Of a stretch of DNA of 64,000 nt, positions 1 to 25,462 are shown one piece after another. The notes under the pieces are model-generated. The model did no database searches. It had not been told where the DNA came from and saw nothing but the letters and a program-made list of their open reading frames with translations. The first letter of the stretch is position 1. Each line of letters begins with the position of its first letter. This DNA comes from Cellulomonas phragmiteti (lineage in GTDB: Bacteria > Actinomycetota > Actinomycetes > Actinomycetales > Cellulomonadaceae): assembly GCF_016862775.1 (NCBI RefSeq), contig NZ_BONP01000006.1, positions 62,001 through 126,000 on the forward strand, given 5' to 3'. The position numbers and the translations under genes are program-made.

Positions 1-908
1 GTCAGGCCCTCGACGGTCTGGACCAGCAGCGGTGCGCCCCCCCACGCGAACGCGTGGTTGAGCTTGGTACCGCCGTGGCCCGGCACCTCCACGAACGAGT
101 CGCGGGGGAGCGAGATCATCGCGGTCGGGCCGTCGGCGGGCACGTGCAGCAGCAGGATCGTGTCCGTGCGCTGCCCCTCGGTGCCGTCCTCCGCGATACC
201 GCCCTCGTCGCCGCGCGCGTCGGACCCTGCGAGCAGGTACGTGGTGCCCGGTGTCCCGGGCGCCCCGGACAGTGCGGGGGTCTTCTGCAGCAGACCGTTC
301 GCCCAGATCAGCAACCCGACGGGCCAGGCGACGAGCGCCGCGAGGACGAGGAGCGCGACCACGCCGGCGATGCGCCGACGGCGTCCGCCTCCCGCACCCT
401 CGGAGGGTGCGACCGGCGGTCGGGGAGCCCGTGGCGTGGCCGCGGCCGGTCGCCCCGGGCTCCCGGGCGCGCCGGGTCCGGCGGCACGTGCCGTCGCGGG
501 CGACGACGAGCGGGGCGGGGTGGACCGCGCCGTGGCACCCGCCGGGGGGATGCGCGGGGCGTCGCCCGGGCGGGCCCGCCCCGCGGGTGCGAACGAGGCC
601 GGCGCGCCGGTGCCGGGTGCAGCAGGCCCGGGTGCGTCAGGTCGGGACGCGGCAGGTGCGGGAGCGGGCCGGGTGGCGCCGTCGCGGCGCACACCGGTGC
701 CGCGGGGCGCGGGCGCCGGTGGCGGCGTCCGGCCGCGGCTCGGTGTGCCGCCCTCGCGGGGCGCAGGTCGGGAGACCCGGGTCGGCGCCGCGGGGCGTCC
801 GGCCGACCTGCCGACCACGCGGGCGCCGTCCGCTACCGGCCGGTCGCGCCCGCCGTCCGGCGCGAAGCTGGGGGGCGGGGTCGCGTCGTCGTCACGGCGG
901 CCGGTCAC
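1..908 (-). CDS. LCP (LytR-CpsA-Psr) family glycopolymer ligase, 3' end outside window
   Basis: The visible 302 residues begin with a long Pro/Ala/Arg-rich cytoplasmic tail of about 178 residues. One membrane helix follows near residues 179-202, then the start of an extracellular LCP domain. The domain shows the family signatures AGSDAR, QRTDTILLLH and SLPRDSFVEVPG, followed by KLNHAFAWGG. LCP enzymes move undecaprenyl-linked glycopolymers onto peptidoglycan on the outer face of the membrane. The gene runs off the left edge, so the C-terminal half is not seen. The GTG start overlaps the stop of the upstream LCP gene as GTGA, which implies translational coupling. The unusually long basic tail could interact with cytoplasmic partners; that is inference. 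Confidence 0.88.
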   Translation of the reverse strand, partial: MTGRRDDDATPPPSFAPDGGRDRPVADGARVVGRSAGRPAAPTRVSRPAPREGGTPSRGRTPPPAPAPRGTGVRRDGATRPAPAPAASRPDAPGPAAPGTGAPASFAPAGRARPGDAPRIPPAGATARSTPPRSSSPATARAAGPGAPGSPGRPAAATPRAPRPPVAPSEGAGGGRRRRIAGVVALLVLAALVAWPVGLLIWANGLLQKTPALSGAPGTPGTTYLLAGSDARGDEGGIAEDGTEGQRTDTILLLHVPADGPTAMISLPRDSFVEVPGHGGTKLNHAFAWGGAPLLVQTVEGL

Positions 909-2161
909 GGGACTGCTGAACAGCTCGTCGTCGTGGCGTCGGCGGCCGTGAAGGCGTCGACGCCGGGCGTCTTCGTCTCCGTGGGGGCCGGCTCCGCCTC
1001 GGGCGGTGCGGGGGGTGCCTCGGGCTCCCCGGCCGCGGGCGGCGCGGCGGGTGGCTCCGGCGCGGCCGGCGGCTCGGGCTCGCCGAGCATCGGCACGTCC
1101 GCCGCGATGTTCGCCCACAGGGTGTCGGCCTCCGCGGTCCACTCCACGCGGTTCTTGTCGCTGCTGGCGGGTGCCCACGGCACGGTCATGAGGGTGATGT
1201 TCGCACGGTCGATGCCCCGCAGGCTGAAGGCGAGGCCGGTGAGGTCGCCGACGCCGAGGTCGGTCGTCACGGACTTCGTGGCGGCGCTGAGGAACTGCAT
1301 GAGCTGTGCGCCGTCCGTCAGCAGGTTCTTCGACAGGACCTCGTTGGCGACGTTGGCGATGAGCTGCTGCTGGCGTCCGGCACGCATCGTGTCGGAGCCG
1401 TCGAACGTGGTGCCGTGGCGTGCGCGGGCGAACTGCAGCGCGGTGGTGCCGTCGAGCACCTGCTGACCGGCCTTGAGGTCCAGGCCCGTGTACCGGTCCG
1501 ACACGTCCTCCACGATGCACATCGGCACACCGCCGATCGCGTTGATCATGTTCTGGAACCCGGCGAAGTCCACGACGACGACGTTGGTCACCGGCACGCC
1601 GGTGTTGGCCTGGAACGTGCTGACCGTGCACGCGGCCGCGGACTCCAGGTCGCCGCCGTAGTCCCACCCGATCGCGAACGCGGAGTTGAACATCGCGTTG
1701 CGCTGGGCCCGGGTGGTGTTGCCGTTGGTGAGCGTGCACGACGGCACCTCGACCAGCGAGTCGCGCGGGATCGACACCATCTCCACGCGCGTGCGGTCCG
1801 CCGACACGTGCACGAGGATCGTGGTGTCGGAGCGCATGCCCTCCTCGTCGCCACCGATCTCGGCGTTGACGCCGTCACGCTGGTCGGACCCGAGGACGAG
1901 GACGTTGACCGGCTGACCCGCGTGCAGGTCGGTCGGGTCGGGTGCCCCCTCCGCCGTCGGCGCCGCCTCGACCAGACCGCCGAGGTCCAGCCCGTTGACG
2001 TTGTTGGTGAGCCGGGCCGCGAAGGCCGCCCCGCCCGCGGCACCGAACACCACGACGCTCGTCACCGCGAGCGCGACCGCTCGCAGCAGGCGGTGGGGGT
2101 GCAGGTTGCGGGCGTGACGCGGCGCGCGGAGGCGCCGCGGTGCGGCGTGGCGGGTGGTCAC
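905..2161 (-). CDS. LCP (LytR-CpsA-Psr) family glycopolymer ligase
   Basis: This 418-residue protein has a short basic cytoplasmic end, a membrane helix near residues 26-50 and an extracellular LCP domain. Visible motifs are GSDQRD (about 91-96), MRSDTTILVH, SIPRDSLVEV (about 130) and the conserved ALQFARARHG near 243-250. The C-terminal 55 residues are Pro/Ala/Glu-rich, probably a wall-spanning linker. The family transfers lipid-linked wall polysaccharide to peptidoglycan, which fits the neighbouring glycan genes. I chose GTG at 2161 because a TACGAT element sits 6 bases upstream with no good ribosome site, a leaderless pattern. An ATG at 2209 is the alternative and would add 16 residues. 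A second LCP gene follows with a GTGA overlap. Confidence 0.9.
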   Translation of the reverse strand: MTTRHAAPRRLRAPRHARNLHPHRLLRAVALAVTSVVVFGAAGGAAFAARLTNNVNGLDLGGLVEAAPTAEGAPDPTDLHAGQPVNVLVLGSDQRDGVNAEIGGDEEGMRSDTTILVHVSADRTRVEMVSIPRDSLVEVPSCTLTNGNTTRAQRNAMFNSAFAIGWDYGGDLESAAACTVSTFQANTGVPVTNVVVVDFAGFQNMINAIGGVPMCIVEDVSDRYTGLDLKAGQQVLDGTTALQFARARHGTTFDGSDTMRAGRQQQLIANVANEVLSKNLLTDGAQLMQFLSAATKSVTTDLGVGDLTGLAFSLRGIDRANITLMTVPWAPASSDKNRVEWTAEADTLWANIAADVPMLGEPEPPAAPEPPAAPPAAGEPEAPPAPPEAEPAPTETKTPGVDAFTAADATTTSCSAVP

Positions 2162-2167
2162 GCCCCG

Positions 2168-2173
2168 ATCGTA
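2168..2173 (-). promoter_or_regulatory. Candidate -10 element of the LCP pair
   Basis: TACGAT on the minus strand lies 6 bases before the GTG start at 2161, matching the TANNNT consensus at the distance typical of leaderless actinobacterial transcripts. No clear -35 was seen. Confidence 0.4.
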
Positions 2174-2274
2174 GGAGAGCGACCCGCGCCGCGCGGGGGA
2201 GTGGCGCACGGGCGTCGTGGAGGATCTGTGCAGATGCCCCCACCTGGGGCGTCACTCCCCGCGGCGGGCCTCGG

Positions 2275-6585: not shown

Positions 6586-6657
6586 ATGCTTCGACCCCTC
6601 ACCCCGGGGCCACGTCCCGGGAACGTCGGCATGTGCGCGCAGGTGACGGCGGCGTGA
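6586..6657 (+). CDS. Candidate 23-residue leader peptide coupled to wzm
   Basis: A 24-codon frame begins with ATG 7 bases after a TAGGAT -10 element and encodes a Pro/Gly-rich peptide, MLRPLTPGPRPGNVGMCAQV plus three residues. Its TGA stop overlaps the GTG start of the ABC permease as GTGA, exactly like other coupled pairs in this window. It could let ribosomes loading on a leaderless message reach the permease start. It may also be a chance frame. The repeated CCCGGG stretches inside it could form a hairpin. The peptide has no recognisable amino-acid bias for attenuation. Confidence 0.4.
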   Translation: MLRPLTPGPRPGNVGMCAQVTAA

Positions 6658-7496
6658 GAGATCCCGTCCGGACGCGTCGCATGCGCGAGCTGCTCATCAA
6701 CCTCACGATGCGTGAGGTCAAGGGGCGCTACAAGCGCACCGCCCTGGGGAACCTGTGGTCGCTGATCAACCCGATCGCCACGATGGTCGTGTACACGGTC
6801 GTCTTCGGCGTGTTCATGCGGGTCGAGATCGAGCCGAGCCGCACGGGCCTGCACGTCTTCGCGCTCTGGCTGATGTGCGCCCTGATCCCCTGGACGTTCT
6901 TCTCGGCCGCGCTCATGACAGGCCTGAACTCGATCGTCGCCAACGCCAACCTCGTGAAGAAGGTCTTCTTCCCGCGGGAGGTGCTCGTCGCCTCGAGCGT
7001 CTTCGCCCTCGACGTGACCACGGCGATCGAGCTCGGCGTGCTGGTCGTCGCGCTGACGCTGTTCGGCCAGATGCTCCTGCCGTGGCTGCCCATGGTCGTG
7101 GTGCTGCTCATCCTGCTGACCGCCATGGCGCTGGGGTTCGCGCTCATGCTCTCGGTCGCCAACGTGTACTTCCGTGACACCGAGCACTTCGTGGCGATCC
7201 TGCTGCAGATCTGGCTCTACGCGACGCCGATCATCTACCCGCTGTCGCTGGTGCGCCGAGCCGAGGGCGACCTCAACGGCTGGCTCGCCCAGCACGGCCT
7301 GTCCTTCCCCCTCGTGGCCTTCTGGGAGCTCAACCCGATGCTGCACTTCACGCAGGCGTTCCGGGCCGTGCTCTACGAGGAGACGTGGCCGTCCCAGACC
7401 GACATGATCTGGTGCGTGTCGTCCGCCGCCATCGTCCTGTTCATCGGCTGGCGGGTCTTCCGCCGCTTCGAGCCGAGGATGGCGGAGGAGCTGTGA
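6654..7496 (+). CDS. wzm: ABC-2 type polysaccharide export permease
   Basis: The 280-residue integral membrane protein has a cytoplasmic amphipathic start (LLINLTMREVKGRYK) and about six membrane helices, the layout of Wzm/TagG-type permeases. It forms the channel that moves a finished lipid-linked polysaccharide across the membrane. Its ATPase partner follows with a GTGA overlap. The start at GTG 6654 is supported by AGGTG eight bases upstream and by the GTGA overlap with a short upstream frame. A GTG at 6633 is the alternative, adding seven residues. The neighbouring methyltransferase, ATPase and two-domain glycosyltransferase suggest one export module. Confidence 0.9.
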   Translation: MRDPVRTRRMRELLINLTMREVKGRYKRTALGNLWSLINPIATMVVYTVVFGVFMRVEIEPSRTGLHVFALWLMCALIPWTFFSAALMTGLNSIVANANLVKKVFFPREVLVASSVFALDVTTAIELGVLVVALTLFGQMLLPWLPMVVVLLILLTAMALGFALMLSVANVYFRDTEHFVAILLQIWLYATPIIYPLSLVRRAEGDLNGWLAQHGLSFPLVAFWELNPMLHFTQAFRAVLYEETWPSQTDMIWCVSSAAIVLFIGWRVFRRFEPRMAEEL

Positions 7497-8698
7497 GCGA
7501 GATCATCGAGGTCGACGGGGTCTCCAAGCGCTTCCGGATGTACCGCGAGCGCAACCAGTCGCTCAAGGCCTCGCTCATGCGTGGCCGCCGCGCCAAGTAC
7601 GACGAGTTCTGGGCGCTGCGCGACGTCGGGTTCTCCATCCCGCAGGGCTCCACCTTCGGGCTCATCGGCGAGAACGGGTCCGGCAAGTCGACGCTGCTCA
7701 AGTGCCTCGCACGCATCCTCGTCCCCGACGAGGGCTCGATCACCGTCGGTGGCTCCGTGGCGGCGCTCCTCGAGCTCGGGTCCGGGTTCCACCCCGAGCT
7801 CACGGGCCGCGAGAACGTCTACCTCAACGGCTCCATCCTGGGCCTGGGCAAGCGCGAGATCGACCGCAAGTTCGACGAGATCGTCGACTTCGCCGGCATC
7901 GAGACCTTCATCGACCAGCCCGTGAAGAACTACTCGTCCGGCATGTACGTGCGCCTCGGCTTCTCCGTCGCGATCAACGTCGACCCGGACATCCTGCTCG
8001 TCGACGAGGTGCTGGCCGTCGGTGACGCCGCGTTCCAGGCCAAGTGCATGGAGAAGTTCGCGGAGTTCCGGGCCGCGGGCAAGACCGTCGTCATCGTCAG
8101 CCACGCCATGGGCTCGATGCGCACCATGTGCGACCACGTCGCGTGGCTCGACCACGGCCGCCTCGTGCAGTCGGGTCCGGCGACGTCGCTGGTCGACGAG
8201 TACGTGGACGCGACCCACGTCGAGCGCGCCGTGCAGGGCGACCAGCCCGAGCACGAGACCGGCCGGCACGGGTCGGGCGAGGTGACGGTCGAGCGCGTCG
8301 AGCTCATCGACGGCGACGGCCAGCCGGTCACGACCCTGCGCACCGGCGACCCGATGCGGATCCGCGTGCACTACGACGCCCACGAGCGGGTCGACAAGCC
8401 GGTGTTCGGCCTGGCCGTCGAGACCCTCGAGGGCGTCTACGTGTGGGCGTACCACACCCGTGACGGTGGCCTGGAGATCGACGCGGTCTCCGGCAAGGGC
8501 TCGGTCGACTGCGTCGTGCCGGCCGTGCCGCTGCAGCCGGGGACGTTCGACGTGATCGCGTCGGTCGTGGACTGGACGACGCAGCACACCTACGACCTGC
8601 GGCGCAAGGTCGTGCGGTTCGACGTGGAGGCCGGGTCACCGCGCGAGTCGGGCGGGATCGTGGCCATGGGGGCGACATGGACGAGGGAGAGCACGTGA
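7493..8698 (+). CDS. wzt: ABC transporter ATP-binding protein with Wzt C-terminal glycan-binding domain
   Basis: This 401-residue protein has an N-terminal ATPase domain (about 1-240) with Walker A GENGSGKST near 59-67, a signature region YSSGMYVRLGF and Walker B ILLVDEVLAVGD. From about residue 260 it continues into a beta-rich Wzt C-terminal domain. In known Wzt proteins this domain binds the modified end of the polymer before export. TagH-type teichoic acid ATPases lack it, so the exported polymer probably carries a recognised end group, perhaps methylated by the enzyme encoded at 5624. It overlaps the permease and the following glycosyltransferase by GTGA at both ends, so expression should be tightly coupled. 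Confidence 0.92.
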   Translation: MSEIIEVDGVSKRFRMYRERNQSLKASLMRGRRAKYDEFWALRDVGFSIPQGSTFGLIGENGSGKSTLLKCLARILVPDEGSITVGGSVAALLELGSGFHPELTGRENVYLNGSILGLGKREIDRKFDEIVDFAGIETFIDQPVKNYSSGMYVRLGFSVAINVDPDILLVDEVLAVGDAAFQAKCMEKFAEFRAAGKTVVIVSHAMGSMRTMCDHVAWLDHGRLVQSGPATSLVDEYVDATHVERAVQGDQPEHETGRHGSGEVTVERVELIDGDGQPVTTLRTGDPMRIRVHYDAHERVDKPVFGLAVETLEGVYVWAYHTRDGGLEIDAVSGKGSVDCVVPAVPLQPGTFDVIASVVDWTTQHTYDLRRKVVRFDVEAGSPRESGGIVAMGATWTREST

Positions 8699-15249: not shown

Positions 15250-15292
15250 GTCGTCCGTCCCGTCCTCGTCGTCGGCCCGAGCGGCCGGCGCC

Positions 15293-15298
15293 ATCCTA
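15293..15298 (-). promoter_or_regulatory. Candidate -10 for lhgO
   Basis: TAGGAT on the minus strand would start transcription near 15286 and leave a 36-base leader before GTG 15249. It argues against the overlapping upstream ATG. Confidence 0.4.
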
Positions 15299-15411
15299 GT
15301 CGCGCCGTCGCGGCCGTCGACGGCCCGTCGGTCCCACGGCGGGACGGGGCGTGCGCGGTGCCCCCCGGGCGGCCGACGGTGGACGTGGACGTCGCCACGG
15401 GCCCCGCCGTC

Positions 15412-15417
15412 TATGAT
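15412..15417 (+). promoter_or_regulatory. Candidate -10 for the 15452 membrane protein gene
   Basis: TATGAT, a near-consensus -10, lies 34 bases upstream of the GTG at 15452 in the 200-base divergent region. A weak TGGACG upstream could act as -35, although the spacing is long. Confidence 0.5.
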
Positions 15418-15451
15418 CGGTTGCCGTTCCGTCTGTCAGCCGAAGGACGCC

Positions 15452-17512
15452 GTGACCGAGAAGACCGAGGTTCCGACATCGTCGTCGGCGACCGATCCGA
15501 CCGTGCCCCGCGCACCGGTCCCCGGGGCGACGGCCCGCGACCGCTGGGACGCGTGGACCGGGCCCCGCCCGGACGGCCTGCCCCGCGTGCGGGTGCTCCT
15601 CGCGTACCCCGCCCTCCTGCTCGTCGTGCTCGTCGGCCTCGTCGCCGCCGGACTGTCGGGCACGTCGACGGGCGTCGTCCACGGCTGGTTCGAGGAGGGG
15701 GCGGACGGCAACCTCGTGGCGTTCGAGCCGCAGGCGATCCGCAGCGACGAGTGGTCCGTGCAGACGACCTACACCGTGTCCCAGGTGCAGGAGGGGCTGC
15801 CGCTGCACAACGACACGCTCCCCGGCGGCGTCGACATGTCCCTCAACTGGGAGGCGCCGTACGCGGAGTGGTCCGCCGCGTTCCGCCCCCACAACCTGGG
15901 GTTCTTCGTCCTGCCGTTCGACCAGGCGTTCGCGCTGAAGTGGTGGCTGCCGGGACTCGCCCTGGCCGCGGCGGCCTACATGCTCCTGGTGTCGGTGCTG
16001 CCGCGACGGCCGCTCGCCTCCGCCGCGCTCGCCACCGCGTTCCTGTTCTCCCCGTTCTTCCAGTGGTGGTACATCCCGCAGACGCTGTGGCCCGTCGCGT
16101 GGGCGCTGCTGACGATGACGGCGATCGTGTGGACGACCGCGCTCGCGCCGGCACGTGCGCGCTGGCTCTGGGCGCTGCCGGTCGGCTACGTGACCGTGAC
16201 CGCGGCGCTCGGCATCTACGCGCCCTTCCTCATCCCCGTCGCGTACGTCACCGCCGCCTTCGGCGTCGGCTGGGTGCTGCGTCGCGACGGCACCGGGACC
16301 GTCCGCGACCGGCTGCGACGCGTGCTGCCGGTCCTGGCCGGCGGTGCGGCCGGTGGGGTGGTCGTCGTCGTCTTCCTGCTCACGCGGTGGTCGACCATCG
16401 AGGGGTTCCTCGGGACCGTGTACCCCGGGCAGCGGCTCACGCCGCCCGGTGAGGCGCTCGCGGACCCCGACCGGCTCGCCGGCTTCCTCGGGGTGTTCTC
16501 CCTCGCGCTGCACGGCGGGGGGTCGCACGGGATCCGCCCGAACAGCTCGGAGGCGTCGACGTTCGTCTTCCTGGGGGCGTTCGTCGCACTCGGAGGCGTG
16601 TGGCTCCTGCTGCACCTGTGGCGCACCCGTTGCGTCGTCGACGCGCCCCTGGTCGCCGCCCTCGCGTGCGGGGTGCTGTTCGCCGCGTTCCTCTACGTGC
16701 CCGGCTGGGCCCCGATCGCGCACCTGCTGCTGCTGGACCGCGCCACACCGGGACGCATGCTCATCGGGCTGGGTCTGCTGTCGCTCCTGCTCGTGGCGCT
16801 CGTCGTGCGCGCGCTGGACGTGCACGACCTGCGCGCACCGTGGTGGGTGGCCGTCGCCGGCGGGGTCGTCGTGCTCGGCTCGCACGCGGTGCTCGCCGAC
16901 CGTCTGTCGCACCGGCCCGGGGCGCTCGAGGCCTCCGGTCCCTGGTGGCTGTTCGCCCTCGTCCTGGCGGCCGCGGTCGTGCTCGTCCTGCGCCGGCGCC
17001 TGCTGCCCGGGGCCGTCGCCTACCTCGCGCTGAGCCTCGTGTTCGGTGCGTGGGTCAACCCGCTGTACCGCGGCGTGTTCGACCTGCGCGAGACCGACGT
17101 CGCCCAGGCGGTCAGCACGCTCGACGAGCAGGTGCCGGGCAGGTGGGTCGGCGTCGGCGACGCGATGGTCGGGCCCATCCTCACCGCCACGGGCGTCGGC
17201 GCGTTCAACGCGTTCCAGGGTGCCCCCGACGTCGACACCTGGCAGCGGCTCGACCCGTCCGGCCGGTACGAGGTGCACTGGAACCGCTTCGGCAACGTCG
17301 GCTGGATCGTCGACGACGAGGCGCCCCGCATCTCCAACCCCGCGCCCGACCAGGTCCGCGTCAACTTCGACTCCTGCGCCCGCTACGAGCAGTCCGAGAT
17401 CACGCACGTGCTCTCGGACCGGCCGATCGAGCAGCCCTGCCTGCGCCTCGTCGACGAGGTCGACGAGCCCGTCACCACGTTCCACATCTACCAGGTCGTC
17501 GCACGTCCCTGA
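15452..17512 (+). CDS. Large polytopic membrane protein, GT-C-like, paralogue of 47701-49710
   Basis: This 686-residue protein has a first helix at LLAYPALLLVVLVGLVAA, then a large loop (FEPQAIRSDEWSVQTTY). About 10 further hydrophobic helices follow, and a C-terminal extracellular domain of some 150 residues. It aligns by eye with the protein at 47701-49710: both have a R-SDE-[WF] block after the first helix, T-LYPG-[QA]-R in the middle, and SNPA-D-x-[IV]-x-V near the end followed by PCL. The layout resembles GT-C membrane glycosyltransferases that use lipid-linked sugars outside the membrane, but no catalytic motif proves it. The GTG has GAAGGA upstream. The aminotransferase gene follows after 38 bases. 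Confidence 0.82.
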   Translation: MTEKTEVPTSSSATDPTVPRAPVPGATARDRWDAWTGPRPDGLPRVRVLLAYPALLLVVLVGLVAAGLSGTSTGVVHGWFEEGADGNLVAFEPQAIRSDEWSVQTTYTVSQVQEGLPLHNDTLPGGVDMSLNWEAPYAEWSAAFRPHNLGFFVLPFDQAFALKWWLPGLALAAAAYMLLVSVLPRRPLASAALATAFLFSPFFQWWYIPQTLWPVAWALLTMTAIVWTTALAPARARWLWALPVGYVTVTAALGIYAPFLIPVAYVTAAFGVGWVLRRDGTGTVRDRLRRVLPVLAGGAAGGVVVVVFLLTRWSTIEGFLGTVYPGQRLTPPGEALADPDRLAGFLGVFSLALHGGGSHGIRPNSSEASTFVFLGAFVALGGVWLLLHLWRTRCVVDAPLVAALACGVLFAAFLYVPGWAPIAHLLLLDRATPGRMLIGLGLLSLLLVALVVRALDVHDLRAPWWVAVAGGVVVLGSHAVLADRLSHRPGALEASGPWWLFALVLAAAVVLVLRRRLLPGAVAYLALSLVFGAWVNPLYRGVFDLRETDVAQAVSTLDEQVPGRWVGVGDAMVGPILTATGVGAFNAFQGAPDVDTWQRLDPSGRYEVHWNRFGNVGWIVDDEAPRISNPAPDQVRVNFDSCARYEQSEITHVLSDRPIEQPCLRLVDEVDEPVTTFHIYQVVARP

Positions 17513-18713: not shown

Positions 18714-19643
18714 ATGGCAGACAAGACCGTCTTCTTCACCGGCGGCGCCGGCTTCATCGGCATGCACGTCGTGCCCATGCTGCTCGAGCGCGGCTACAAG
18801 GTCCGCATCTTCGACAACATGTTCCGCGGCGACCGCGACGCCGTCGGCCGCCTCGTCGAGAGCGGCGACGTCGAGCTCATCGACCAGGACGTCCGCTACG
18901 GCGGCGCGGTCCAGCAGGCCATGAAGGGCTGCTCCCACGTCATCCACTTCGCCGCGGTGTCGATCAACAAGAGCCAGGCCGACCCGTACGAGTCCATGGA
19001 CATCAACATGGTCGGCAACCACAACGTCTTCGCGGCCGCCGCGGACCAGGGCGTCGAGCGCCTGGTGTTCGCCTCGAGCGCCTCGGTGTACGGGGACCCC
19101 GAGAAGCTGCCGATGCACGAGGACGACCGCCTGTCCCCGCTGACGCCGTACTGCATCTCCAAGCGCGCCGGCGAGGACCTGCTCGGCTTCTACCAGCGGC
19201 GCGCGGGCCTGTCGTGGGTCGCGCTGCGGTTCTTCAACGTCTACGGCCCCGGCCAGAAGACGACCGCGTACTACACGTCCGTCATCAACCACTTCGTCAA
19301 CCGGCTGCGCAACGGCGAGCCGCCCGTCATCGACGGCAAGGGCGAGCAGTCGATGGACTTCATCCACGTGCACGACATCGCGCGGTCCGCGGTGCTCGCG
19401 CTGGAGTCGGAGCGGGCCAACGTGCCCGTCAACATCGGCACCGGCATCGACACGTCGATCGCCGACCTCGCGCGCATCCTCATCGACGCCGTGGGCGCCG
19501 ACGTCGAGCCCGTCTTCAACCCGCGCGACGTCCTGGTGAGCCGGCGCGCCGCCGACGTGCAGCGGGCCAAGGAGGTCCTCGGCTTCGAGCACACCATCAG
19601 CGTGCGCGACGGCATGACCGACCTCATCCGGAACGGCGGCTGA
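18714..19643 (+). CDS. NAD-dependent sugar nucleotide epimerase/dehydratase
   Basis: The 309-residue extended short-chain dehydrogenase has the NAD motif [12 protein letters not shown]. Its catalytic region includes FASSASVYGD and the YxxxK pair at YCISK, followed by RFFNVYGPGQK. The family includes UDP-glucose 4-epimerases and UDP-sugar 4,6-dehydratases. The order after the aminotransferase and before an acyltransferase suggests it prepares or reshapes the sugar in the same pathway. The ATG has AGGAG at good spacing. The stop overlaps the next start as TGATG. Confidence 0.9.
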   Translation: MADKTVFFTGGAGFIGMHVVPMLLERGYKVRIFDNMFRGDRDAVGRLVESGDVELIDQDVRYGGAVQQAMKGCSHVIHFAAVSINKSQADPYESMDINMVGNHNVFAAAADQGVERLVFASSASVYGDPEKLPMHEDDRLSPLTPYCISKRAGEDLLGFYQRRAGLSWVALRFFNVYGPGQKTTAYYTSVINHFVNRLRNGEPPVIDGKGEQSMDFIHVHDIARSAVLALESERANVPVNIGTGIDTSIADLARILIDAVGADVEPVFNPRDVLVSRRAADVQRAKEVLGFEHTISVRDGMTDLIRNGG

Positions 19644-20098
19644 TGGCGGTCCGCCCCCCGGGGACGCTGCCGCCCAACCCGTACCACGAGCACGCGTGGA
19701 TCGTGGGGGAGCCGACGATCGGTGAGGGCACCTGGATCGGCGCCTTCACGGTCATCGACGGCTCGGGCGGGCTGACCATCGGGGCCGGGTGCGACATCAG
19801 CGCCGGCGTGCAGGTGTACACGCACTCCAGCGCCCGCCGCTGCGTGTCCGGCCGCGCGTGGGACACGGTCGAGCGCGCCCCCGTGGTCATCGGCGACCGG
19901 GTCTTCCTCGGTGCCAACGCCGTCGTGATGATGGGCGTCACCATCGGTGACGAGGCGGTCGTGGGCGCAGGTGCCGTGGTCACGCGGGACGTGCCCGCGC
20001 GCACCGTGGTCACCGGCGTGCCCGCACGCGTCGTGGGCCGGGTCGAGCTCGGCGAGCCCGGCTCGCGGCCCGAGCTCGTCCGGGAGGTCGACGCGTGA
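19643..20098 (+). CDS. Left-handed beta-helix acyltransferase
   Basis: This 151-residue protein is built almost entirely of hexapeptide repeats (IGEGTWIGAF, ITIGAGCDIS-like turns, VVIGDRVFLGANAVVMMGVTIG). It ends in the VTRDVPARTVVTGVPARVVG block of the WbbJ/maltose-acetyltransferase group. His79 in YTHSS is the likely catalytic base. It probably acetylates an amino sugar or a glycan hydroxyl using acetyl-CoA. The ATG overlaps the epimerase stop as TGATG, and its own stop overlaps the GT4 start as GTGA, so all are translationally linked. Confidence 0.88.
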   Translation: MAVRPPGTLPPNPYHEHAWIVGEPTIGEGTWIGAFTVIDGSGGLTIGAGCDISAGVQVYTHSSARRCVSGRAWDTVERAPVVIGDRVFLGANAVVMMGVTIGDEAVVGAGAVVTRDVPARTVVTGVPARVVGRVELGEPGSRPELVREVDA

Positions 20099-21285
20099 GG
20101 ATCGTCGTCGTCAACAACTTCTACCCACCGCGCGTGGGCGGCAGCTCGCACCTCTCGGACGCCCTGGCCCGGGCGTACGCCGCGCGGGGCCACGACGTGC
20201 TCGTGGTCACCGCGGCGTACGGCGACGCACCGCCCGTCGAGCACCGTGACGGCCTGACGATCGTGCGGCTCCCGGCGTTCGCGCTGCCGGAGTCGCGGTT
20301 CGCCGTGAGCTTCGACATCTCGTTCGCCACCCGTCCGAGCCTGGTCCGCCGGCTGTGGCGCCTGCTCGACGGGTTCGCCCCGGACGTGGTGCACCAGCAC
20401 GGGCAGTTCTTCGACCTCACGTGGGCCACCGGTGCCTGGGCGCGCCACCGTGGCGTGCCGACGCTGCTCAGCATCCACACCCGGCTGGAGAACCCCCAGG
20501 CCCACTACCACGGCGTCTTCCGCGGGCTGGACGCGCTCATGGTCTACCCGACGATGCGGGTGCACCGGCCGCACCTCGTCGTCATGGACGCGCTGATGGA
20601 CGACTACGTCAAGGCGCGGTACCGGGGGGCCACCTCCGGTCTCGAGTACATCCCGGTCGGTGTGGACGCCGGGTGGACCGTCGGCGGCGACCGTGCCACG
20701 GGCCGTGCCCGTCTCGGCGTCGACGACGCCACCCCGCTCGTGCTGTCGCTGGGCCACGTCATCCCGCTGCGCGACCGGGTCGCCCTCGTGGAGGCGCTGC
20801 CGGCCGTCCTGGAGCAGGTGCCGGACGTCCGTCTCGCCGTCGTCGGACGGGTCTACTACGACGCGTTCGAGCGACGCGCGGACGAGCTCGGGGTGCGCGA
20901 CCACGTGCTCAGCGTCGGTGCGGTGCCCAAGAGCGAGGTCCCCGACCTGCTGGCCGCCGCCGACGTCGAGTCCCACGAGCAGGGCATCGGGCTGGGGACC
21001 GCGACGCTCGAGGCGATGGCTGCCGGCGTCCCGGTGGTCGCCCCCGGGCGGGTCGACAACTTCCCGACCGTCCCGCTCGGCCACCGTGAGCACCTGTGGG
21101 TGACGGAGCCCGGTGACGTGCCGGCACTCGCCGCGGCGCTGGTCGACGCGCTGACCGACCGCGAGCACGCGAGGCGCGTCGGTCTGGCGGCGCAGCAGGT
21201 GGTGCACGAGAGCTTCGCGCTGGAACGCGTCGTCGACCAGCACCTCGAGGTGCTCGAGCGGCTCGCGGCGTCCCGCCGACGCTGA
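20095..21285 (+). CDS. GT4 family glycosyltransferase
   Basis: The 396-residue GT-B enzyme starts with VVVNNFYPPRVGGSSHLSDA, the classic family-4 acceptor-domain opening. It has VVHQHGQFFDLTWATGAW and LLSIHTRLEN in the first half, then LSLGHVIPLRDRVALVEAL and the HEQGIGLGTATLEAMAAG nucleotide-binding block in the second. The EX7E position reads EQGIGLGT..E, so the first Glu is present in a modified context. It probably adds the sugar made by the preceding aminotransferase, epimerase and acyltransferase. The GTG start overlaps the acyltransferase stop as GTGA. A strong hairpin follows the stop. Confidence 0.9.
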   Translation: MRIVVVNNFYPPRVGGSSHLSDALARAYAARGHDVLVVTAAYGDAPPVEHRDGLTIVRLPAFALPESRFAVSFDISFATRPSLVRRLWRLLDGFAPDVVHQHGQFFDLTWATGAWARHRGVPTLLSIHTRLENPQAHYHGVFRGLDALMVYPTMRVHRPHLVVMDALMDDYVKARYRGATSGLEYIPVGVDAGWTVGGDRATGRARLGVDDATPLVLSLGHVIPLRDRVALVEALPAVLEQVPDVRLAVVGRVYYDAFERRADELGVRDHVLSVGAVPKSEVPDLLAAADVESHEQGIGLGTATLEAMAAGVPVVAPGRVDNFPTVPLGHREHLWVTEPGDVPALAAALVDALTDREHARRVGLAAQQVVHESFALERVVDQHLEVLERLAASRRR

Positions 21286-21381: not shown

Positions 21382-22356
21382 TCATGCGGGAACGGCGGCC
21401 GCCGCGTCCTTGACCCGGGCGACGACCGCGTGCGAGGGCAGGATCGAGTCGCGCTCGGCGGTCGCGTCGACCTCTCCGCGCACGAGCGCGACGAACCGGT
21501 CGAGCTGCGCCGCGAGAGGCTCGCGCGACGTCGCCATCTCGGGGATCTCGATGACGGTCTGCTGGCGGTAGCCGCGGCCGTCGTCGGAGGCCTCGGCGGC
21601 CACGTGGTGGTACACCGTCACGCCACGGCGCAGCAGGTCGATCTCGACCATGCGGTCCAGCTCGTGGATGACGAGCTCGCGGACCTTCTTCTGGCCCACG
21701 CGGCTGGCCGACACCGAGGCCACCCCGCCCTGCGAGAAGCGCAACGACGCCTGGACGACGTCCTCCGCGCCCGGCAGCGAGGACGGGTGGAACTGACCGA
21801 CGACCGCCTCGACCTGCTCGACGTCGCCGGGGAGGAACTGCATGGCGAGGTCGACGTCGTGCACCAGCAGGTCCCACGCGACGCCGGTGCGGATGCGGGG
21901 GGCGTACGGGGAGTGCCGCGTGGCCGTCACGTGCACGGGGGCCTCCACGATGGAGCGTGCCGTGACCACCGCGGGGTTGTACCGCTCGAGCAGGCCGCAC
22001 ATCACCGGGACGTCGCGGACCCGCGCGAGGTCGAGCACCTGGCGGGTCTCCTCGAGGGTCGGCGTCACCGGCTTCTCGACGAGCAGGGGCACTCCGGCCT
22101 CGAGCACCTGGCGGGCCAGCGGGCCGTGCACCTCCGTCGCCGCGGCGACGATCACGGCGTCGATGCCGTCCAGGGAGCCGATCTCGGGGCGCCACGACGC
22201 GCCGAAGCGCTCGGCGACGGCGCCCCCGACGTCGGCCCGGGGGTCGACGACGACCGCCAGCCGGGTGCCGTCGTTCTGGGACGTGACGCGCGCGTGCAGC
22301 GAGCCCATGGACCCGGCGCCCACCAGCAGGACGTTCAGCGGTGCGGTCACGGTCAT
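21382..22356 (-). CDS. Gfo/Idh/MocA-type sugar nucleotide dehydrogenase (GnnA/WlbA-like)
   Basis: This 324-residue oxidoreductase has an N-terminal Rossmann motif VGAGSMGSLHA, the family EKP signature in VEKPVTPTLEE, and the conserved VHDVDL/D-V-D catalytic-region segment. The partner gene upstream is a DegT aminotransferase, joined by an ATGA overlap. In known pathways (GnnA/GnnB and WlbA/WlbE) such a pair oxidises and then aminates C3 of a UDP-GlcNAc-type sugar. The LpxA-like acyltransferase just across the divergent region would complete an acylated 3-amino sugar. The substrate is inference; the enzyme classes are clear. Confidence 0.88.
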   Translation of the reverse strand: MTVTAPLNVLLVGAGSMGSLHARVTSQNDGTRLAVVVDPRADVGGAVAERFGASWRPEIGSLDGIDAVIVAAATEVHGPLARQVLEAGVPLLVEKPVTPTLEETRQVLDLARVRDVPVMCGLLERYNPAVVTARSIVEAPVHVTATRHSPYAPRIRTGVAWDLLVHDVDLAMQFLPGDVEQVEAVVGQFHPSSLPGAEDVVQASLRFSQGGVASVSASRVGQKKVRELVIHELDRMVEIDLLRRGVTVYHHVAAEASDDGRGYRQQTVIEIPEMATSREPLAAQLDRFVALVRGEVDATAERDSILPSHAVVARVKDAAAAVPA

Positions 22357-23453
22357 GCCCCCAGGATGCTGCGCACGGCCGACACGATGGTGTCGACGTC
22401 CGCGTCGGACACCTTGGGGTGCACGGGCAGGGAGACGACCTCGCGGACGATGCGCTCCGCGACGGGGACGTCGCCGACCCGCACGCGCGGGTGGTCGCGG
22501 TAGCAGTCGTAGTCGAACACCAGGCGCGGGTAGTAGATGCCGTTGCCGATGCCCGCCTCCGTGAGGCGTGCGACGAACTCGTCGCGGTCGACGCGCGCGT
22601 CGGGCGTCAGGCGCACGGTGAACTGGTGCCACACGTGCGAGCGGCCGGGCAGCTCGCGCGGCACCACGAGCCCCGGGACGCCGTCGAGGCCCTCGGTGAG
22701 GCGCGCGGCGTTCGCCTTGCGGCGCGCGACGGTCGCCGCGTAGCGGTCGAGCTGGGGGAGCACGACCGCGGCCTGCAGGTCGGTCAGGCGGTAGTTGTGA
22801 CCCGCCACCTCGTACTGGTAGCGGGCGCGCATGCCCTGGTTCCGCAGCACGCGGAGGCGGTCGGCGAGGGTGTCGTCGTCGGTGGTGATGACACCGCCCT
22901 CACCCGTCGTGAGGTTCTTGGTGCCGTAGAACGAGAAGCAGCCCAGGCCGAAGCTGCCCGCGGCCCGGCCCTCGAAGGTCGCGCCGTGCGACTGGGCCGA
23001 GTCCTCCACGAGCGCGAGGTCGTGGGAGTCGGCCAGCTCGCGGAACGCGCCGGCGTCGACGGTCTGCCCGTACAGGTGGACCGGCATGAGCACCGCGGTG
23101 CGGTCGGTGACGGCGGCCGCGGCGGCCGCGGCGTCGAGGTTGAAGTCCGACTCGGCGATGTCCGCGAACGTGGCGGTCGCGCCGGCCTCGAGGATCGCGT
23201 TGAGGGTGGCGACGAACGTGAACGGCGTCGTCAGCACCTCGTCGCCCTCCTGCAGGTCGAGCACCTGCAACGCGGCGACCAGGGCCGTCGTGCCGTTGTT
23301 GACCGCGACGGCGTGGCGCACCCCCGTCAGCTCGGCGAAGCGGCGTTCGAACTCGGCGACCACGGGTCCCTGGGCGACCATGCCCGAGCGCAGGACCTTG
23401 AGGACCTCGGCCTCGACCTCGGGGCCGAGGTCGACGGAGGAGATGGGGATCAC
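22353..23453 (-). CDS. DegT/DnrJ/EryC1/StrS aminotransferase (GnnB/WlbE-like)
   Basis: The 366-residue PLP enzyme begins IPISSVDLGPEV and has MVAQGPVVAEFE, VNNGTTALVAAL, TTPFTFVATLNAIL and VEDSAQSHGA. The PLP lysine is Lys179 in SFYGTKNLTTGEGG. This variant is the one most often seen acting at sugar C3 or C4 in WlbE, WbpE and GnnB pathways. The GTG at 23453 is preceded by AAGGG. Its stop overlaps the Gfo/Idh dehydrogenase start as ATGA, so the two steps are made together. It is a different subgroup from the aminotransferase at 17551, so the locus probably makes two amino sugars. Confidence 0.92.
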   Translation of the reverse strand: MIPISSVDLGPEVEAEVLKVLRSGMVAQGPVVAEFERRFAELTGVRHAVAVNNGTTALVAALQVLDLQEGDEVLTTPFTFVATLNAILEAGATATFADIAESDFNLDAAAAAAAVTDRTAVLMPVHLYGQTVDAGAFRELADSHDLALVEDSAQSHGATFEGRAAGSFGLGCFSFYGTKNLTTGEGGVITTDDDTLADRLRVLRNQGMRARYQYEVAGHNYRLTDLQAAVVLPQLDRYAATVARRKANAARLTEGLDGVPGLVVPRELPGRSHVWHQFTVRLTPDARVDRDEFVARLTEAGIGNGIYYPRLVFDYDCYRDHPRVRVGDVPVAERIVREVVSLPVHPKVSDADVDTIVSAVRSILGA

Positions 23454-23550
23454 GGCTGCCCTTGCTGTGAGTACCGGATGGATTGCCGCCGACCGTACCA
23501 GGCGGCCGGCGGCCGTCCGGGGGACCGGTGCGCCTCGTCCACGCGGTCGG

Positions 23551-23556
23551 TAGCAT
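23551..23556 (+). promoter_or_regulatory. Candidate -10 of a leaderless transcript
   Basis: TAGCAT lies seven bases before GTG 23564, the usual spacing for a leaderless start. No ribosome site is visible. Confidence 0.45.
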
Positions 23557-23563
23557 CGAGCCT

Positions 23564-24283
23564 GTGACACGGACGACACACGACGGAAACACGATCCACC
23601 CCTCGGCGGTCATCGGTGACGAGGTGGAGCTGGGGACCGGCAACGTCATCGGGCCCCACGTCGTCATCCTCGGGCCTGTGCGCATCGGGGACGAGAACTG
23701 GTTCGGGTCGGGCGCCACGATCGGTGCGCCGCCGGAGGTGCGCGGCGCCGCGCACCCCGCGCAGTGGCTGACCGGCGGTGGCGGTGAGGGCGTCGTGATC
23801 GGTGACCGCAACGTCGTCCGCGAGCAGGCGGTCGTCCACCAGGGCTGGCAGGCGGTCACGACGCTCGGCGACGACTGCTTCGTCATGAACCGGGCCTACG
23901 TGGCTCACGACTGCCGGCTCGGTGACGGGGTGACGCTCGCGTCGGGTGTCGCCCTCGGCGGGCACGTCGTCGTCGGCGAGCGCGCCACGCTGGGCATGGG
24001 CGCGCTCGTGCACCAGCGGCGGCTCGTGGCCCCGGGCGCGATGGTCGGCATGGGCGCGGTTGTCAGCCGGGACGTCGCCCCGTTCGCCAAGGTGTACGGC
24101 AACCCGGCGCGGGTCCGGGGCGCCAACGTCGTGGGCATGCAGCGCCAGGGGGTCCTCGAGGACGCCGTCGCCGAGGTCGAGCGCGCGTACGCCCTGGGCC
24201 GACGCCCGGACCCGGAGCTGCTCGACGACGAGCTGCGCGAGGTCTTCGCCCGGTGGGACGAGGCCCACGCGGTCGCACGCTGA
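23564..24283 (+). CDS. LpxA-like UDP-sugar acyltransferase
   Basis: This 239-residue left-handed beta-helix protein resembles LpxA more than small acetyltransferases. It starts IHPSAVIGDEVELG, and has ATIGAPPE, VIGDRNVVREQAVVHQG, AYVAHDC with His115 at the LpxA catalytic position, MGALVHQ, and GNPARVRGANVVGMQRQG. LpxA acylates UDP-GlcNAc or UDP-GlcNAc3N in Gram-negative lipid A synthesis, which this organism should not have. Next to GnnA/GnnB-like genes, it may acylate a 3-amino sugar for the wall glycan. It is slightly shorter than E. coli LpxA (about 262). The C-terminus is helical. The GTG start is chosen for the TAGCAT element seven bases upstream. Confidence 0.85.
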   Translation: MTRTTHDGNTIHPSAVIGDEVELGTGNVIGPHVVILGPVRIGDENWFGSGATIGAPPEVRGAAHPAQWLTGGGGEGVVIGDRNVVREQAVVHQGWQAVTTLGDDCFVMNRAYVAHDCRLGDGVTLASGVALGGHVVVGERATLGMGALVHQRRLVAPGAMVGMGAVVSRDVAPFAKVYGNPARVRGANVVGMQRQGVLEDAVAEVERAYALGRRPDPELLDDELREVFARWDEAHAVAR

Positions 24284-24415
24284 GCCGCGTTACCCTGGTC
24301 GCGGCCCGGGTGCCGCCGATCAGTGCCGACCGGCGGGCGCGGGGCGGTGCCGTGTCCGCCCGAGGGTCGTCGAGCGCCCGACCGGGCGAGATCGCAGGAC
24401 GGGGAGCAGCATCCG

Positions 24416-25462
24416 ATGAGCACCACCGCGCGCCCGGAGCCGGCGCACGTCCCGCCGACCGGCGACCCCTCGGTCGCGCCCGCCTCACGGCGTGCGGTGC
24501 TCATGGCGACGGTCCGCTGGGGCCTCATCGTCGTCGTCCTGGTGGCCGCCGGCTGGCAGGTCGCACGTCAGTGGGGTGAGGTCCGCGAGGCGCTCGTCGC
24601 GGTGCACCCGCTCGCCGCGGCGCTGTCGTTCGTGTGCGTCGTGCTGGGGCTGGGCGCCGGGACGATGAGCTGGCAGACCCTCCTGGACGACCTGGGGCCG
24701 CGCGTCGGCGTCGCGCGCGGTGCGCAGATCTGCCTGGTGGGCCAGCTCGGCAAGTACGTGCCGGGCTCGGTGTGGGCGTACCTGCTGCAGATGGAGCTGG
24801 GGCGCCGGCACGGCGTGGCGCGCGCCCGCGTCTTCGCCGCGAGCCTGTTCGCCGCCGGTGTCGGCGTCGTGGCCTCGTTGATCCTGGGGCTTGCGGCGCT
24901 GCCGGTGCTCGCCGGCCAGCAGCGCGGGCTGCTCTGGCTGTTCGCGCTGCTGCCCGTCGGGCTGGTGTGCCTGCACCCGCGCGTGCTCACGTGGATGGCG
25001 TCCACGATCTTCCGCCTGCTGCGCAAGCCGCCGCTGGACCACACGCTGCGCGTCTCGGTCGTCGCCCGGTCGCTGGGGTGGGCGCTGGTGTCGTACCTGC
25101 TCTTCGGTGTGCACCTGTGGCTGCTCGCCAACTCCCTGGTGGACCCGGGCCCGGCGGCGCTGCTGCTGTGCGCCGGGGCGATCGCCCTCGGCTTCACGGC
25201 CGGGCTGTTCGCGGTGTTCCTGCCCTCGGGCGTCGGCGTGCGGGAGGCCGTCATCGTGGCCGCCCTGGCGACCATGCTGAGCGTGGGCACCGCCACCGGC
25301 ATCGCGGTCGCCTCACGGCTCGTCTTCACGGTGGGCGACCTCGTCGTCGCGGGCATCGCGGCGCTCACCGCCGTCGTGGCGCGGCGCCGGGCTGCTGCCG
25401 CGGGTCTGCCCACGGACGTCCCGGACGAGCTGCGTCAGGGCAGCGCGGCACCGGTCGCCTGA
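24416..25462 (+). CDS. AglD/MprF-type (lysylphosphatidylglycerol synthase TM) membrane protein
   Basis: The 348-residue protein has about eight hydrophobic helices and two hallmark segments: LVGQLGKYVPGSVWAYLLQ near residue 105 and FLPSGVGVREAVIVAAL near residue 270. These define the flippase-like family also found in AglD, MprF N-terminal halves and hopanoid proteins. It likely moves or handles a lipid-linked sugar. There is no synthase domain. GGGGAG lies upstream of the ATG. A second family member is encoded at 42240-43241. It ends four bases before the convergent GT4 gene. Confidence 0.82.
   Translation: MSTTARPEPAHVPPTGDPSVAPASRRAVLMATVRWGLIVVVLVAAGWQVARQWGEVREALVAVHPLAAALSFVCVVLGLGAGTMSWQTLLDDLGPRVGVARGAQICLVGQLGKYVPGSVWAYLLQMELGRRHGVARARVFAASLFAAGVGVVASLILGLAALPVLAGQQRGLLWLFALLPVGLVCLHPRVLTWMASTIFRLLRKPPLDHTLRVSVVARSLGWALVSYLLFGVHLWLLANSLVDPGPAALLLCAGAIALGFTAGLFAVFLPSGVGVREAVIVAALATMLSVGTATGIAVASRLVFTVGDLVVAGIAALTAVVARRRAAAAGLPTDVPDELRQGSAAPVA

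What the first reader, a model, noticed from the sequence alone, without database searches (positions are those of the whole stretch)
21382..24283. GnnA/GnnB-like pair beside an LpxA-like acyltransferase in a Gram-positive
A Gfo/Idh dehydrogenase and a DegT aminotransferase overlap by ATGA, and an LpxA-like beta-helix acyltransferase (AYVAHDC with His115, GNPARVRG ending) starts just across a 110-base divergent region. In Acidithiobacillus and Leptospira, GnnA and GnnB make UDP-GlcNAc3N and LpxA acylates it for lipid A. An actinobacterium makes no lipid A, so this set may build an acylated 3-amino sugar for a wall glycan. The WlbA/WlbE/WlbD uronic acid route is the main alternative.
Basis: partly seen in the sequence, partly recalled or inferred. 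Interest (0 to 1): 0.7.

Follow-up and report, generated by a model that had tools for sequence, protein, structure and literature searches.

The report
Actinobacterial 3-amino-sugar acyltransferase gene trio
Three neighbouring genes in a Gram-positive bacterium look like a small assembly line that swaps one hydroxyl of a common wall sugar for an amino group and then caps it, most likely with acetyl, using a cousin of the enzyme that Gram-negative bacteria use to start endotoxin.

Summary
In detail: a GnnA-type dehydrogenase (21382-22356, -), a DegT aminotransferase overlapping it by ATGA (22353-23453, -) and, 110 bases away and divergent, an LpxA-like beta-helix protein (23564-24283, +). The set is conserved: in the order, the same 6 of 248 genomes carry the LpxA-like gene and the close GnnA, and 69 of 71 actinobacterial genomes found with the LpxA-like gene carry a GnnA-type gene. 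The dehydrogenase is nearer to GnnA than to WlbA. The acyltransferase falls with LpxA against LpxD but outside the lipid A clade and below the LpxA cut-offs; catalytic residues are kept, several substrate residues are not. It shares four telling residues with Pcryo_0615, a solved N-acetyltransferase for a 2,3-diacetamido sugar. Most likely product: UDP-2,3-diacetamido-2,3-dideoxyglucose for a surface glycan. A uronic product or a longer acyl group is not excluded; a Leucobacter locus with GnnA beside a HexNAc 6-dehydrogenase favours the uronic route there.

The parts
21382..22356 (-). GnnA-like Gfo/Idh dehydrogenase (P0001), proposed UDP-GlcNAc 3-dehydrogenase
   Evidence: Best solved relative 7bvj, GnnA of Acidithiobacillus ferrooxidans (named): phmmer 90 bits, profile 142.5 bits, fold rank 1; E95-K96-P97, D163, H167 and D168 invariant in 34 aligned sequences; model pLDDT 95.1
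22353..23453 (-). GnnB-like DegT/DnrJ/EryC1/StrS aminotransferase (P0002), proposed 3-aminotransferase
   Evidence: Pfam PF01041 396 bits; PLP lysine K179 in FYGTKNLTTGEGG; next to a close GnnA on the same strand in 33 of 36 loci
23454..23563 (.). 110-base divergent intergenic region between the two transcription units
   Evidence: Sequence read directly; GnnA and LpxA-like genes are on opposite strands in 33 of 36 loci with a close GnnA
23564..24283 (+). LpxA-like left-handed beta-helix acyltransferase (P0003), proposed 3-N-acetyltransferase
   Evidence: PRK05289 179.4 bits (cut-off 226), TIGR01852 163.8 (cut-off 231); model pLDDT 95.7; nearest folds LpxA (Z 27-30) and Pcryo_0615 (Z 26.6, rmsd 1.3)
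24323..25462 (+). LPG_synthase_TM membrane protein downstream of the acyltransferase (an in-frame ATG at 24416 is the likelier start)
   Evidence: Pfam PF03706 47.4 bits; homologue at >=150 bits in the fetched flanks of 26 of 71 actinobacterial loci
20095..21285 (+). GT4 glycosyltransferase, candidate user of the sugar (context)
   Evidence: Pfam; homologue >=150 bits in 9 of 71 loci
18714..19643 (+). NAD-dependent sugar epimerase/dehydratase (context)
   Evidence: Pfam PF01370; homologue >=150 bits in 12 of 71 loci
6633..8698 (+). Wzm/Wzt-type ABC exporter of a polysaccharide (context; ORFs 6633-7496 and 7385-8698)
   Evidence: ABC2_membrane, ABC_tran and Wzt_C
905..2209 (-). LytR-CpsA-Psr ligase-type protein (context)
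   Evidence: Pfam PF03816 134.9 bits

Best explanation
The trio makes a nucleotide-activated, 3-N-acylated 2,3-diamino sugar. Step 1 (inferred from homology): the GnnA-like enzyme oxidises the 3-hydroxyl of UDP-GlcNAc with NAD+. Step 2 (inferred; least specific assignment): the DegT enzyme transaminates the 3-keto group to give UDP-GlcNAc3N. Step 3 (inferred): the LpxA-like enzyme, using the conserved His115-Asp116 pair, acylates the new 3-amino group, the same position that LpxA acylates, but with a small acyl group, most likely acetyl from acetyl-CoA, giving UDP-2,3-diacetamido-2,3-dideoxy-D-glucose. Neighbouring glycosyltransferases and the ABC exporter then build it into a surface or wall glycan. 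Shown here: gene order, family relations, conserved residues, co-occurrence. Not shown: any activity, the substrate or the acyl group.
For: Co-occurrence: the same 6 of 248 genomes of the order hold both genes. Of 71 actinobacterial loci, 36 have the close GnnA in the flanks and 18 a second GnnA type; 14 more genomes carry the close GnnA elsewhere (9, 5) and one the second type: 69 of 71. Three of the 18 second-type proteins were scored on the UDP-GlcNAc 3-dehydrogenase model (183-235 bits) and one was taken to the PDB, where 7bvj was best. GnnA rather than WlbA: 142.5 v 50.5 bits (labels of 3q2k and 3q2i recalled), fold rank 1. Acetyl: Pcryo_0615, titled an N-acetyltransferase required to produce a diacetamido-2,3-dideoxy sugar, aligns at 36% over 181 residues, rmsd 1.3, scores higher to 25 of 26 actinobacterial rows than to any of 11 lipid A LpxA rows, and shares E, Y, M and R with the window protein at E. 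coli LpxA positions 73, 122, 155 and 162. A gammaproteobacterial LpxA-like gene lies among an RmlB, an FdtA and a DegT gene, again a 3-amino-sugar setting. Non-uronic: a UDP-sugar 6-dehydrogenase ORF in the flanks of 2 of 71 loci; both such genes of the window genome score as UDP-glucose type.
Against: Pcryo_0615 works on a uronic acid (title of its paper seen in a reference list), so its closeness also fits the uronic route. A Leucobacter genome has GnnA beside a UDP-HexNAc-type 6-dehydrogenase. The tree puts the actinobacterial group nearer to LpxA (82/71) than to Pcryo_0615, weakly. The four residues shared with Pcryo_0615 are not general: in 78 rows E 78, Y 62, M 54, R 53, and L214 has none of them. 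Met at the LpxA chain-ruler position (76 of 78) also occurs in LpxA enzymes that carry C10 chains (P. aeruginosa, recalled). P0002's best solved hits are perosamine synthases; WbpE comes later. The window's GnnA clade lies beside, not inside, the gammaproteobacterial GnnA clade. 2 of 71 genomes, both MAGs (L072, L073), show no GnnA. NF040723's cut-off is far from met (131.8 v 450).
Confidence: 0.57

Rival explanations
1. Uronic route (WlbA/WlbE/WlbD-like): the sugar is first oxidised at C6, and the trio acts on UDP-GlcNAcA to give UDP-GlcNAc3NAcA, as in the teichuronic acids of Streptomyces.
For: Actinobacterial precedent: GlcNAc3NAcA and ManNAc3NAcA in Streptomyces wall polymers with a proposed utr pathway (PMC13274773, passages read). 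Pcryo_0615 is the nearest solved N-acetyltransferase. Leucobacter L186 has GnnA beside a UDP-HexNAc-type 6-dehydrogenase; L196, with a GnnB homologue, has one too; the cut-off ORF in L085 also leans to that type.
Against: Dehydrogenase profile 142.5 bits to GnnA v 50.5 and 40.4 to the structures recalled as WlbA, and those only over the NAD domain. 6-dehydrogenase ORF in the flanks of 2 of 71 loci, one of them UDP-glucose type. The window genome's two genes over the PF03721 cut-off score as UDP-glucose type (336-386 bits v 143-180 for UDP-ManNAc type; no TviB hit at 1e-20).
Confidence: 0.2
2. Fatty acylation: P0003 keeps LpxA's chemistry and puts a 3-hydroxyacyl or other medium chain from ACP on the 3-amino group, giving a lipidated wall sugar or glycolipid in a monoderm.
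For: In the tree the actinobacterial group is nearest to lipid A LpxA, weakly (82/71); LpxA folds head the structural list (Z 27-30); E. coli H125, D126, H160 and Q161 kept in 78 of 78 rows; a C-terminal domain of the LpxA type (Acetyltransf_11).
Against: Lipid A LpxA form their own clade (100/99); scores under both LpxA cut-offs; D74, K76, H122 and R205 not kept in the window protein; G155 to Met as in Pcryo_0615. A motif scan of the 71 loci and the window for acyl carrier protein genes gave 11 hits, none ACP-like on reading; a general ACP elsewhere could serve.
Confidence: 0.12
3. The three genes do not form one pathway: the aminotransferase and acyltransferase serve another sugar, for example a 4-amino or dTDP-3-amino sugar, and sit beside the dehydrogenase by cluster shuffling.
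For: DegT assignments are unspecific; an LpxA-like gene sits in an FdtA/DegT cluster in a gammaproteobacterium; surface-sugar clusters recombine.
Against: GnnA-type and LpxA-like genes co-occur in 69 of 71 genomes and in the same 6 of 248, also where they are not adjacent and with two unlike GnnA types.
Confidence: 0.08

Closest known systems
GnnA/GnnB/LpxA route to UDP-GlcNAc3N and its 3-N-acyl derivative in lipid A of Acidithiobacillus, Leptospira and others (recalled, save for passages of PMC5644692)
   Same: GnnA-type dehydrogenase, DegT partner, LpxA-family enzyme acting at position 3
   Different: No match to LpxC or LpxB in the genome; LpxA-like enzyme outside the lipid A clade with changed substrate residues; located in a surface-glycan cluster of an actinobacterium
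Pcryo_0615 of Psychrobacter cryohalolentis (PDB 8e62), N-acetyltransferase for a 2,3-diacetamido-2,3-dideoxy sugar
   Same: LpxA-like fold, 36% identity over 181 residues, shared residues E, Y, M, R at four positions where lipid A LpxA differs
   Different: Pcryo_0615 has no counterpart of the first 25 residues of P0003 and has another substrate loop (it keeps the Asp of LpxA position 74); its substrate is a uronic acid according to its paper's title
Streptomyces griseus utr cluster (teichuronic acid-like polymer with ManNAc3NAcA and GlcNAc3NAcA; PMC13274773)
   Same: 2,3-diacetamido sugar made for an actinobacterial wall polymer by a proposed dehydrogenase, aminotransferase and N-acetyltransferase
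   Different: Uronic, with a UDP-sugar dehydrogenase (utrD) in the cluster; none found near the trio here
WlbA/WlbE/WlbB (WbpB/WbpE/WbpD) of Bordetella and Pseudomonas
   Same: Same three kinds of reaction at C3
   Different: The structures recalled as WlbA and the one titled WlbB are more distant than GnnA and LpxA from P0001 and P0003

Membership tests
Lipid A LpxA (UDP-GlcNAc acyltransferase) | Score over the curated cut-off of the LpxA models | tested here: not met
   179.4 v 226 and 163.8 v 231 bits
Lipid A LpxA (UDP-GlcNAc acyltransferase) | Place inside the clade of lipid A LpxA proteins | tested here: not met
   11 LpxA rows form a clade 100/99 without the 26 actinobacterial rows; both together split from LpxD at 100/99
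Lipid A LpxA (UDP-GlcNAc acyltransferase) | Catalytic His-Asp and Gln (E. coli H125, D126, Q161) | tested here: met
   78 of 78 aligned rows, two of them duplicates of one genome record each
Lipid A LpxA (UDP-GlcNAc acyltransferase) | Residues D74, K76, H122, R205 (roles recalled) | tested here: not met
   Window V, G, Y, Q; in 78 rows D74 0, K76 0, H122 6, R205 4
Lipid A LpxA (UDP-GlcNAc acyltransferase) | LpxC and LpxB in the same genome | tested here: not met
   No match to PF03331 or PF02684 at E<=0.001
GnnA | Nearer to solved GnnA than to other solved Gfo/Idh enzymes | tested here: met
   7bvj first by phmmer, profile and Foldseek
GnnA | Curated UDP-GlcNAc 3-dehydrogenase model | tested here: inconclusive
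   NF040723 is the best model at 131.8 bits, cut-off 450; a GnnA encoded beside lpxB, lpxA and lpxD scores 212.5, also under it
GnnA | Inside the clade of GnnA encoded beside lpxB | tested here: inconclusive
   Window's type and the gammaproteobacterial GnnA are neighbouring clades (96 and 98 SH-aLRT), not nested; midpoint root
GnnA | Oxidation of UDP-GlcNAc at C3 | not testable with these tools
   Needs enzyme assay
GnnB | DegT family with PLP lysine | tested here: met
   PF01041 396 bits, K179
GnnB | Same clade as GnnB encoded beside lpxB | tested here: inconclusive
   Actinobacterial rows form their own clade (SH-aLRT 100) beside, not inside, the gammaproteobacterial GnnB
WlbA/WbpB | Nearest to WlbA structures | tested here: not met
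   3q2k 50.5 and 3q2i 40.4 bits v 142.5 for GnnA; that these two entries are WlbA is recalled
WlbA/WbpB | Partner UDP-GlcNAc 6-dehydrogenase in the genome | tested here: inconclusive
   Two PF03721 genes over cut-off, both scoring as UDP-glucose type; specificity not assayed, genome in 67 contigs
Pcryo_0615-like 3-N-acetyltransferase | Residues that set Pcryo_0615 apart from lipid A LpxA | tested here: met
   Window E58, Y112, M145 and R152 match at E. coli positions 73, 122, 155 and 162; not general in the family
Pcryo_0615-like 3-N-acetyltransferase | One clade with Pcryo_0615 without LpxA | tested here: inconclusive
   Placed nearer LpxA with support 82/71; blastp scores of Pcryo_0615 say the opposite for 25 of 26 rows
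Pcryo_0615-like 3-N-acetyltransferase | Uses acetyl-CoA and a 3-amino UDP-sugar | not testable with these tools
   Needs enzyme assay

The most novel reading that the evidence does not exclude
A monoderm lineage has turned an LpxA sister enzyme and a GnnA/GnnB pair into a dedicated route that puts a fatty or hydroxy-acyl chain on a 3-amino sugar, giving a lipid-A-like acylated sugar in a wall glycan or glycolipid outside lipid A.
Probability: 0.12. Interest if true: 0.85.

Novelty: new variant of a known kind. Interest (0 to 1): 0.5.

Why it matters
It links an LpxA sister family, found in 71 actinobacterial records by one scan, to UDP-GlcNAc 3-dehydrogenases of two separate types. That predicts a neutral 2,3-diamino sugar in the envelope of monoderm bacteria; as far as I recall, this sugar is best known from lipid A, and its uronic forms from O-antigens and from Streptomyces teichuronic acids (the last in PMC13274773). 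It also offers a natural set of enzymes for asking how the LpxA fold changed between acetyl and long-chain donors at the same sugar position. One enzyme assay would decide substrate and acyl group.

Tried and rejected
Rejected or weakened: (1) lipid A proper, since no match to LpxC or LpxB is in the genome. (2) NeuD/PglD-type acetyltransferase, which groups apart. (3) LpxD, split at 100/99. (4) WlbB-type acetyltransferase, Z 22 against 27-30 for LpxA. (5) A local ACP gene: 11 motif hits, none ACP-like on reading.

Led nowhere: paper searches for 2,3-diamino sugars in the walls of the relatives gave nothing on point; one search gave PMC13274773. Searches for GnnA and LpxA in Gram-positives found no report of such a trio; I say no more about print than these three searches of an open library. 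PMC3087551 (passages) says that none of its seven Gram-positives had the lipid A genes. A search for PDB codes and WlbA gave no paper that names 7bvj, 3q2k or 3q2i on this subject. PMC8040287 (a find) does not mention Pcryo_0615. The paper on Pcryo_0615 was not held; its title was seen in a reference list. The original GnnA/GnnB, Leptospira LpxA and WlbA papers were not read; what I say of them is recalled. Pcryo_0615 as a query found one relative at E<=1e-25 in 369 gammaproteobacterial genomes.

Errors of mine: the tree row L213_G441 was a wrong reading frame; that tree is not used, only the blastp list for Pcryo_0615. The right ORF (L214, 8087-8764) is used. The tree held L112 on a long branch. 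LpxA trees used every second row of A2 (25 of 50, plus the window). The GnnA tree used 21, 7 and 12 chosen rows; the GnnB tree 39 chosen rows. PDB and fold lists show the best 50 or 60 rows only, so absence from them is not evidence.
Full report
What is there. The three genes are at the stated places. The Gfo/Idh gene runs from 22356 down to 21382, the DegT gene from 23453 down to 22353; stop and start overlap in ATGA. After 110 bases the LpxA-like gene runs from 23564 to 24283 on the other strand. Pfam names all three. Around them lies a surface-glycan region: an LCP-type protein, a GDP-mannose-dehydratase-like enzyme, GT4 and GT2 glycosyltransferases, a Wzm/Wzt exporter with a Wzt C-terminal domain, an epimerase and an LPG_synthase_TM membrane protein directly downstream of the acyltransferase, and rhamnose-type genes further on.

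Dehydrogenase. The best NCBIfam model is UDP-GlcNAc 3-dehydrogenase (NF040723, 131.8 bits, under its cut-off of 450). Among solved structures the best is 7bvj, GnnA of Acidithiobacillus ferrooxidans: 90 bits with one sequence, 142.5 bits with a profile of 34 sequences, and rank 1 by fold (model pLDDT 95.1). The entries I recall as WlbA (3q2k, 3q2i) reach 50.5 and 40.4 bits over the NAD domain only. Six gammaproteobacterial homologues encoded near a DegT gene and lpxB, in one case also near lpxA, fabZ and lpxD (L176), give 110-129 bits to P0001 and serve as lipid A references. In a tree of 40 chosen rows the window's type, the gammaproteobacterial GnnA and a second actinobacterial type form three clades; the window's type is beside, not inside, the lipid A GnnA.

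Aminotransferase. It is a DegT enzyme with the PLP lysine. Its closest solved relatives are perosamine synthases, then others including WbpE. The GnnB tree gives the actinobacterial proteins a clade of their own. So GnnB is a role inferred from the neighbour, not from the sequence.

Acyltransferase. It scores 179.4 and 163.8 bits on the LpxA models, under cut-offs of 226 and 231. The model (pLDDT 95.7) matches LpxA at Z 27-30 and Pcryo_0615 at Z 26.6 over 181 residues with rmsd 1.3. In a careful tree of 52 rows, LpxA, the actinobacterial rows, Pcryo_0615 and L214 split from LpxD at 100/99; 11 lipid A LpxA rows form a clade at 100/99; 26 actinobacterial rows group at 89/62; Pcryo_0615 groups with L214 at 90/76; the order of the three is weak (82/71). 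In 78 aligned rows (71 loci plus 7, two of them duplicates) E. coli H125, D126, G143, H160, Q161 and N198 are kept in all 78, R204 in 77 and H144 in 75; Q73 is E in 78, G173 is M in 76, H191 is P in 78; D74 and K76 are kept in none, H122 in 6 (Y in 62) and R205 in 4; position 155 is M in 54 and position 162 R in 53. Pcryo_0615 has E, Y, M and R at 73, 122, 155 and 162, as the window protein does, though it keeps Asp at 74; L214 has none of the four.

Conservation. One scan of the genome collection with six orthologues returned 80 loci; 71 (L036-L106) are actinobacterial, 9 are from Gram-negatives. Eight of these nine lie beside lpxD, and most beside lpxB; L112, a Saprospiraceae contig, does not, and is closer to the window protein (120 bits) than to E. 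coli LpxA (71 bits). Of the 71, 36 have the close GnnA in the fetched flanks and 18 a second type. Three of the 18 were scored on NF040723 (183-235 bits, more than the window's own) and one was taken to the PDB, where 7bvj was best; the other 15 are called second type because they match that of L082 at 59-84%. The remaining 17 genomes were searched whole with P0001: 14 hold the close GnnA elsewhere (317-411 bits; 9, 5). By matching contig lengths, it lies 14-21 kb from the LpxA-like gene in L052, L055, L071, L085 and L086 and about 319 kb away in L077. Of the other three, the genome of L038 holds a second-type GnnA (69% over 325 residues, some 29 kb from the LpxA-like gene if the contigs of equal length are one), and the best hits of L072 and L073, both MAGs, match neither type well. 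That makes 69 of 71. In the window's order, 6 of 248 genomes hold the LpxA-like gene at >=200 bits and the same 6 the close GnnA at >=300 bits; one more holds a 201-bit GnnA. None of the 4 other genomes of the genus in that sample has either. In the phylum sample, 6 of 396 genomes matched at E<=1e-25; of these G888 is a lipid A type LpxA beside a FabZ-like gene and G834 an LpxD-like protein, so 4 are members of this family, and all 4 have a GnnA homologue nearby.

Which sugar. Against the uronic route: a UDP-sugar 6-dehydrogenase ORF lies in the flanks of 2 of 71 loci, one UDP-glucose type and one cut-off ORF leaning to HexNAc type, and the two such genes of the window genome score as UDP-glucose type. 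For it: L186 (Leucobacter) has GnnA beside a UDP-HexNAc-type 6-dehydrogenase and L196 one near a GnnB homologue; Streptomyces walls hold GlcNAc3NAcA and ManNAc3NAcA (PMC13274773, passages); the Pseudomonas and Thermus pathway includes a 6-dehydrogenase (PMC10622841, passages). I keep the neutral sugar first and the uronic one second.

Which acyl group. Closeness to an N-acetyltransferase, changed LpxA residues, and no nearby ACP gene found favour acetyl. The Met at the chain-ruler position does not decide, since LpxA enzymes with Met carry C10 (recalled). An LpxA-like gene among RmlB, FdtA, a DegT gene and an ORF that begins like RmlA (read, not searched) in a gammaproteobacterium (L214) suggests that this wider family acylates 3-amino sugars in general; 3-hydroxybutyryl is then also possible.

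Verdict. Real, conserved and functionally coherent; a new variant of known sugar chemistry rather than a new kind of system.

Noticed in passing
L187:7006-8977 and L188:7726-11757 (Leucobacter genomes): The close GnnA lies near an LpxD-like acyltransferase (93 and 102 bits to E. coli LpxD; 178 and 191 bits on PRK00892); in L187 the two ORFs are divergent and overlap at their starts.
   Followed up: partly
L186:5992-8579 (Leucobacter, genome of L101): A UDP-HexNAc-type 6-dehydrogenase directly precedes GnnA, which suggests a uronic 2,3-diamino sugar in that lineage.
   Followed up: partly
L196:1880-10161 (phylum-mate G834): An LpxD-like protein over the PRK00892 cut-off (244.7 v 207) with a GnnB homologue (57%) and a UDP-HexNAc-type 6-dehydrogenase.
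   Followed up: partly
L195:134-2289 (phylum-mate G888, 3,294-base contig): A full LpxA over its cut-off (312 v 226) beside a FabZ-like gene in a genome placed in the phylum; contamination or a lineage with lipid A genes.
   Followed up: no
L214:6550-10734 (gammaproteobacterium G441): RmlB, RmlA-like, LpxA-like, FdtA and DegT genes in a row: an LpxA relative where an FdtC/QdtC-type acetyltransferase would be expected.
   Followed up: partly
L112:1259-1975 (Saprospiraceae contig): LpxA-like protein nearer to the actinobacterial family than to E. coli LpxA, with no lpxD, lpxB or fabZ match on its short contig.
   Followed up: no
window 33634-39051: 1,805-residue ORF joining methyltransferase, GT4 and RgpF (rhamnan synthesis) domains.
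   Followed up: no
window 15119-17512 and 47701-49812: Two large proteins with DUF7657 and DUF7654 in the same glycan region.
   Followed up: no
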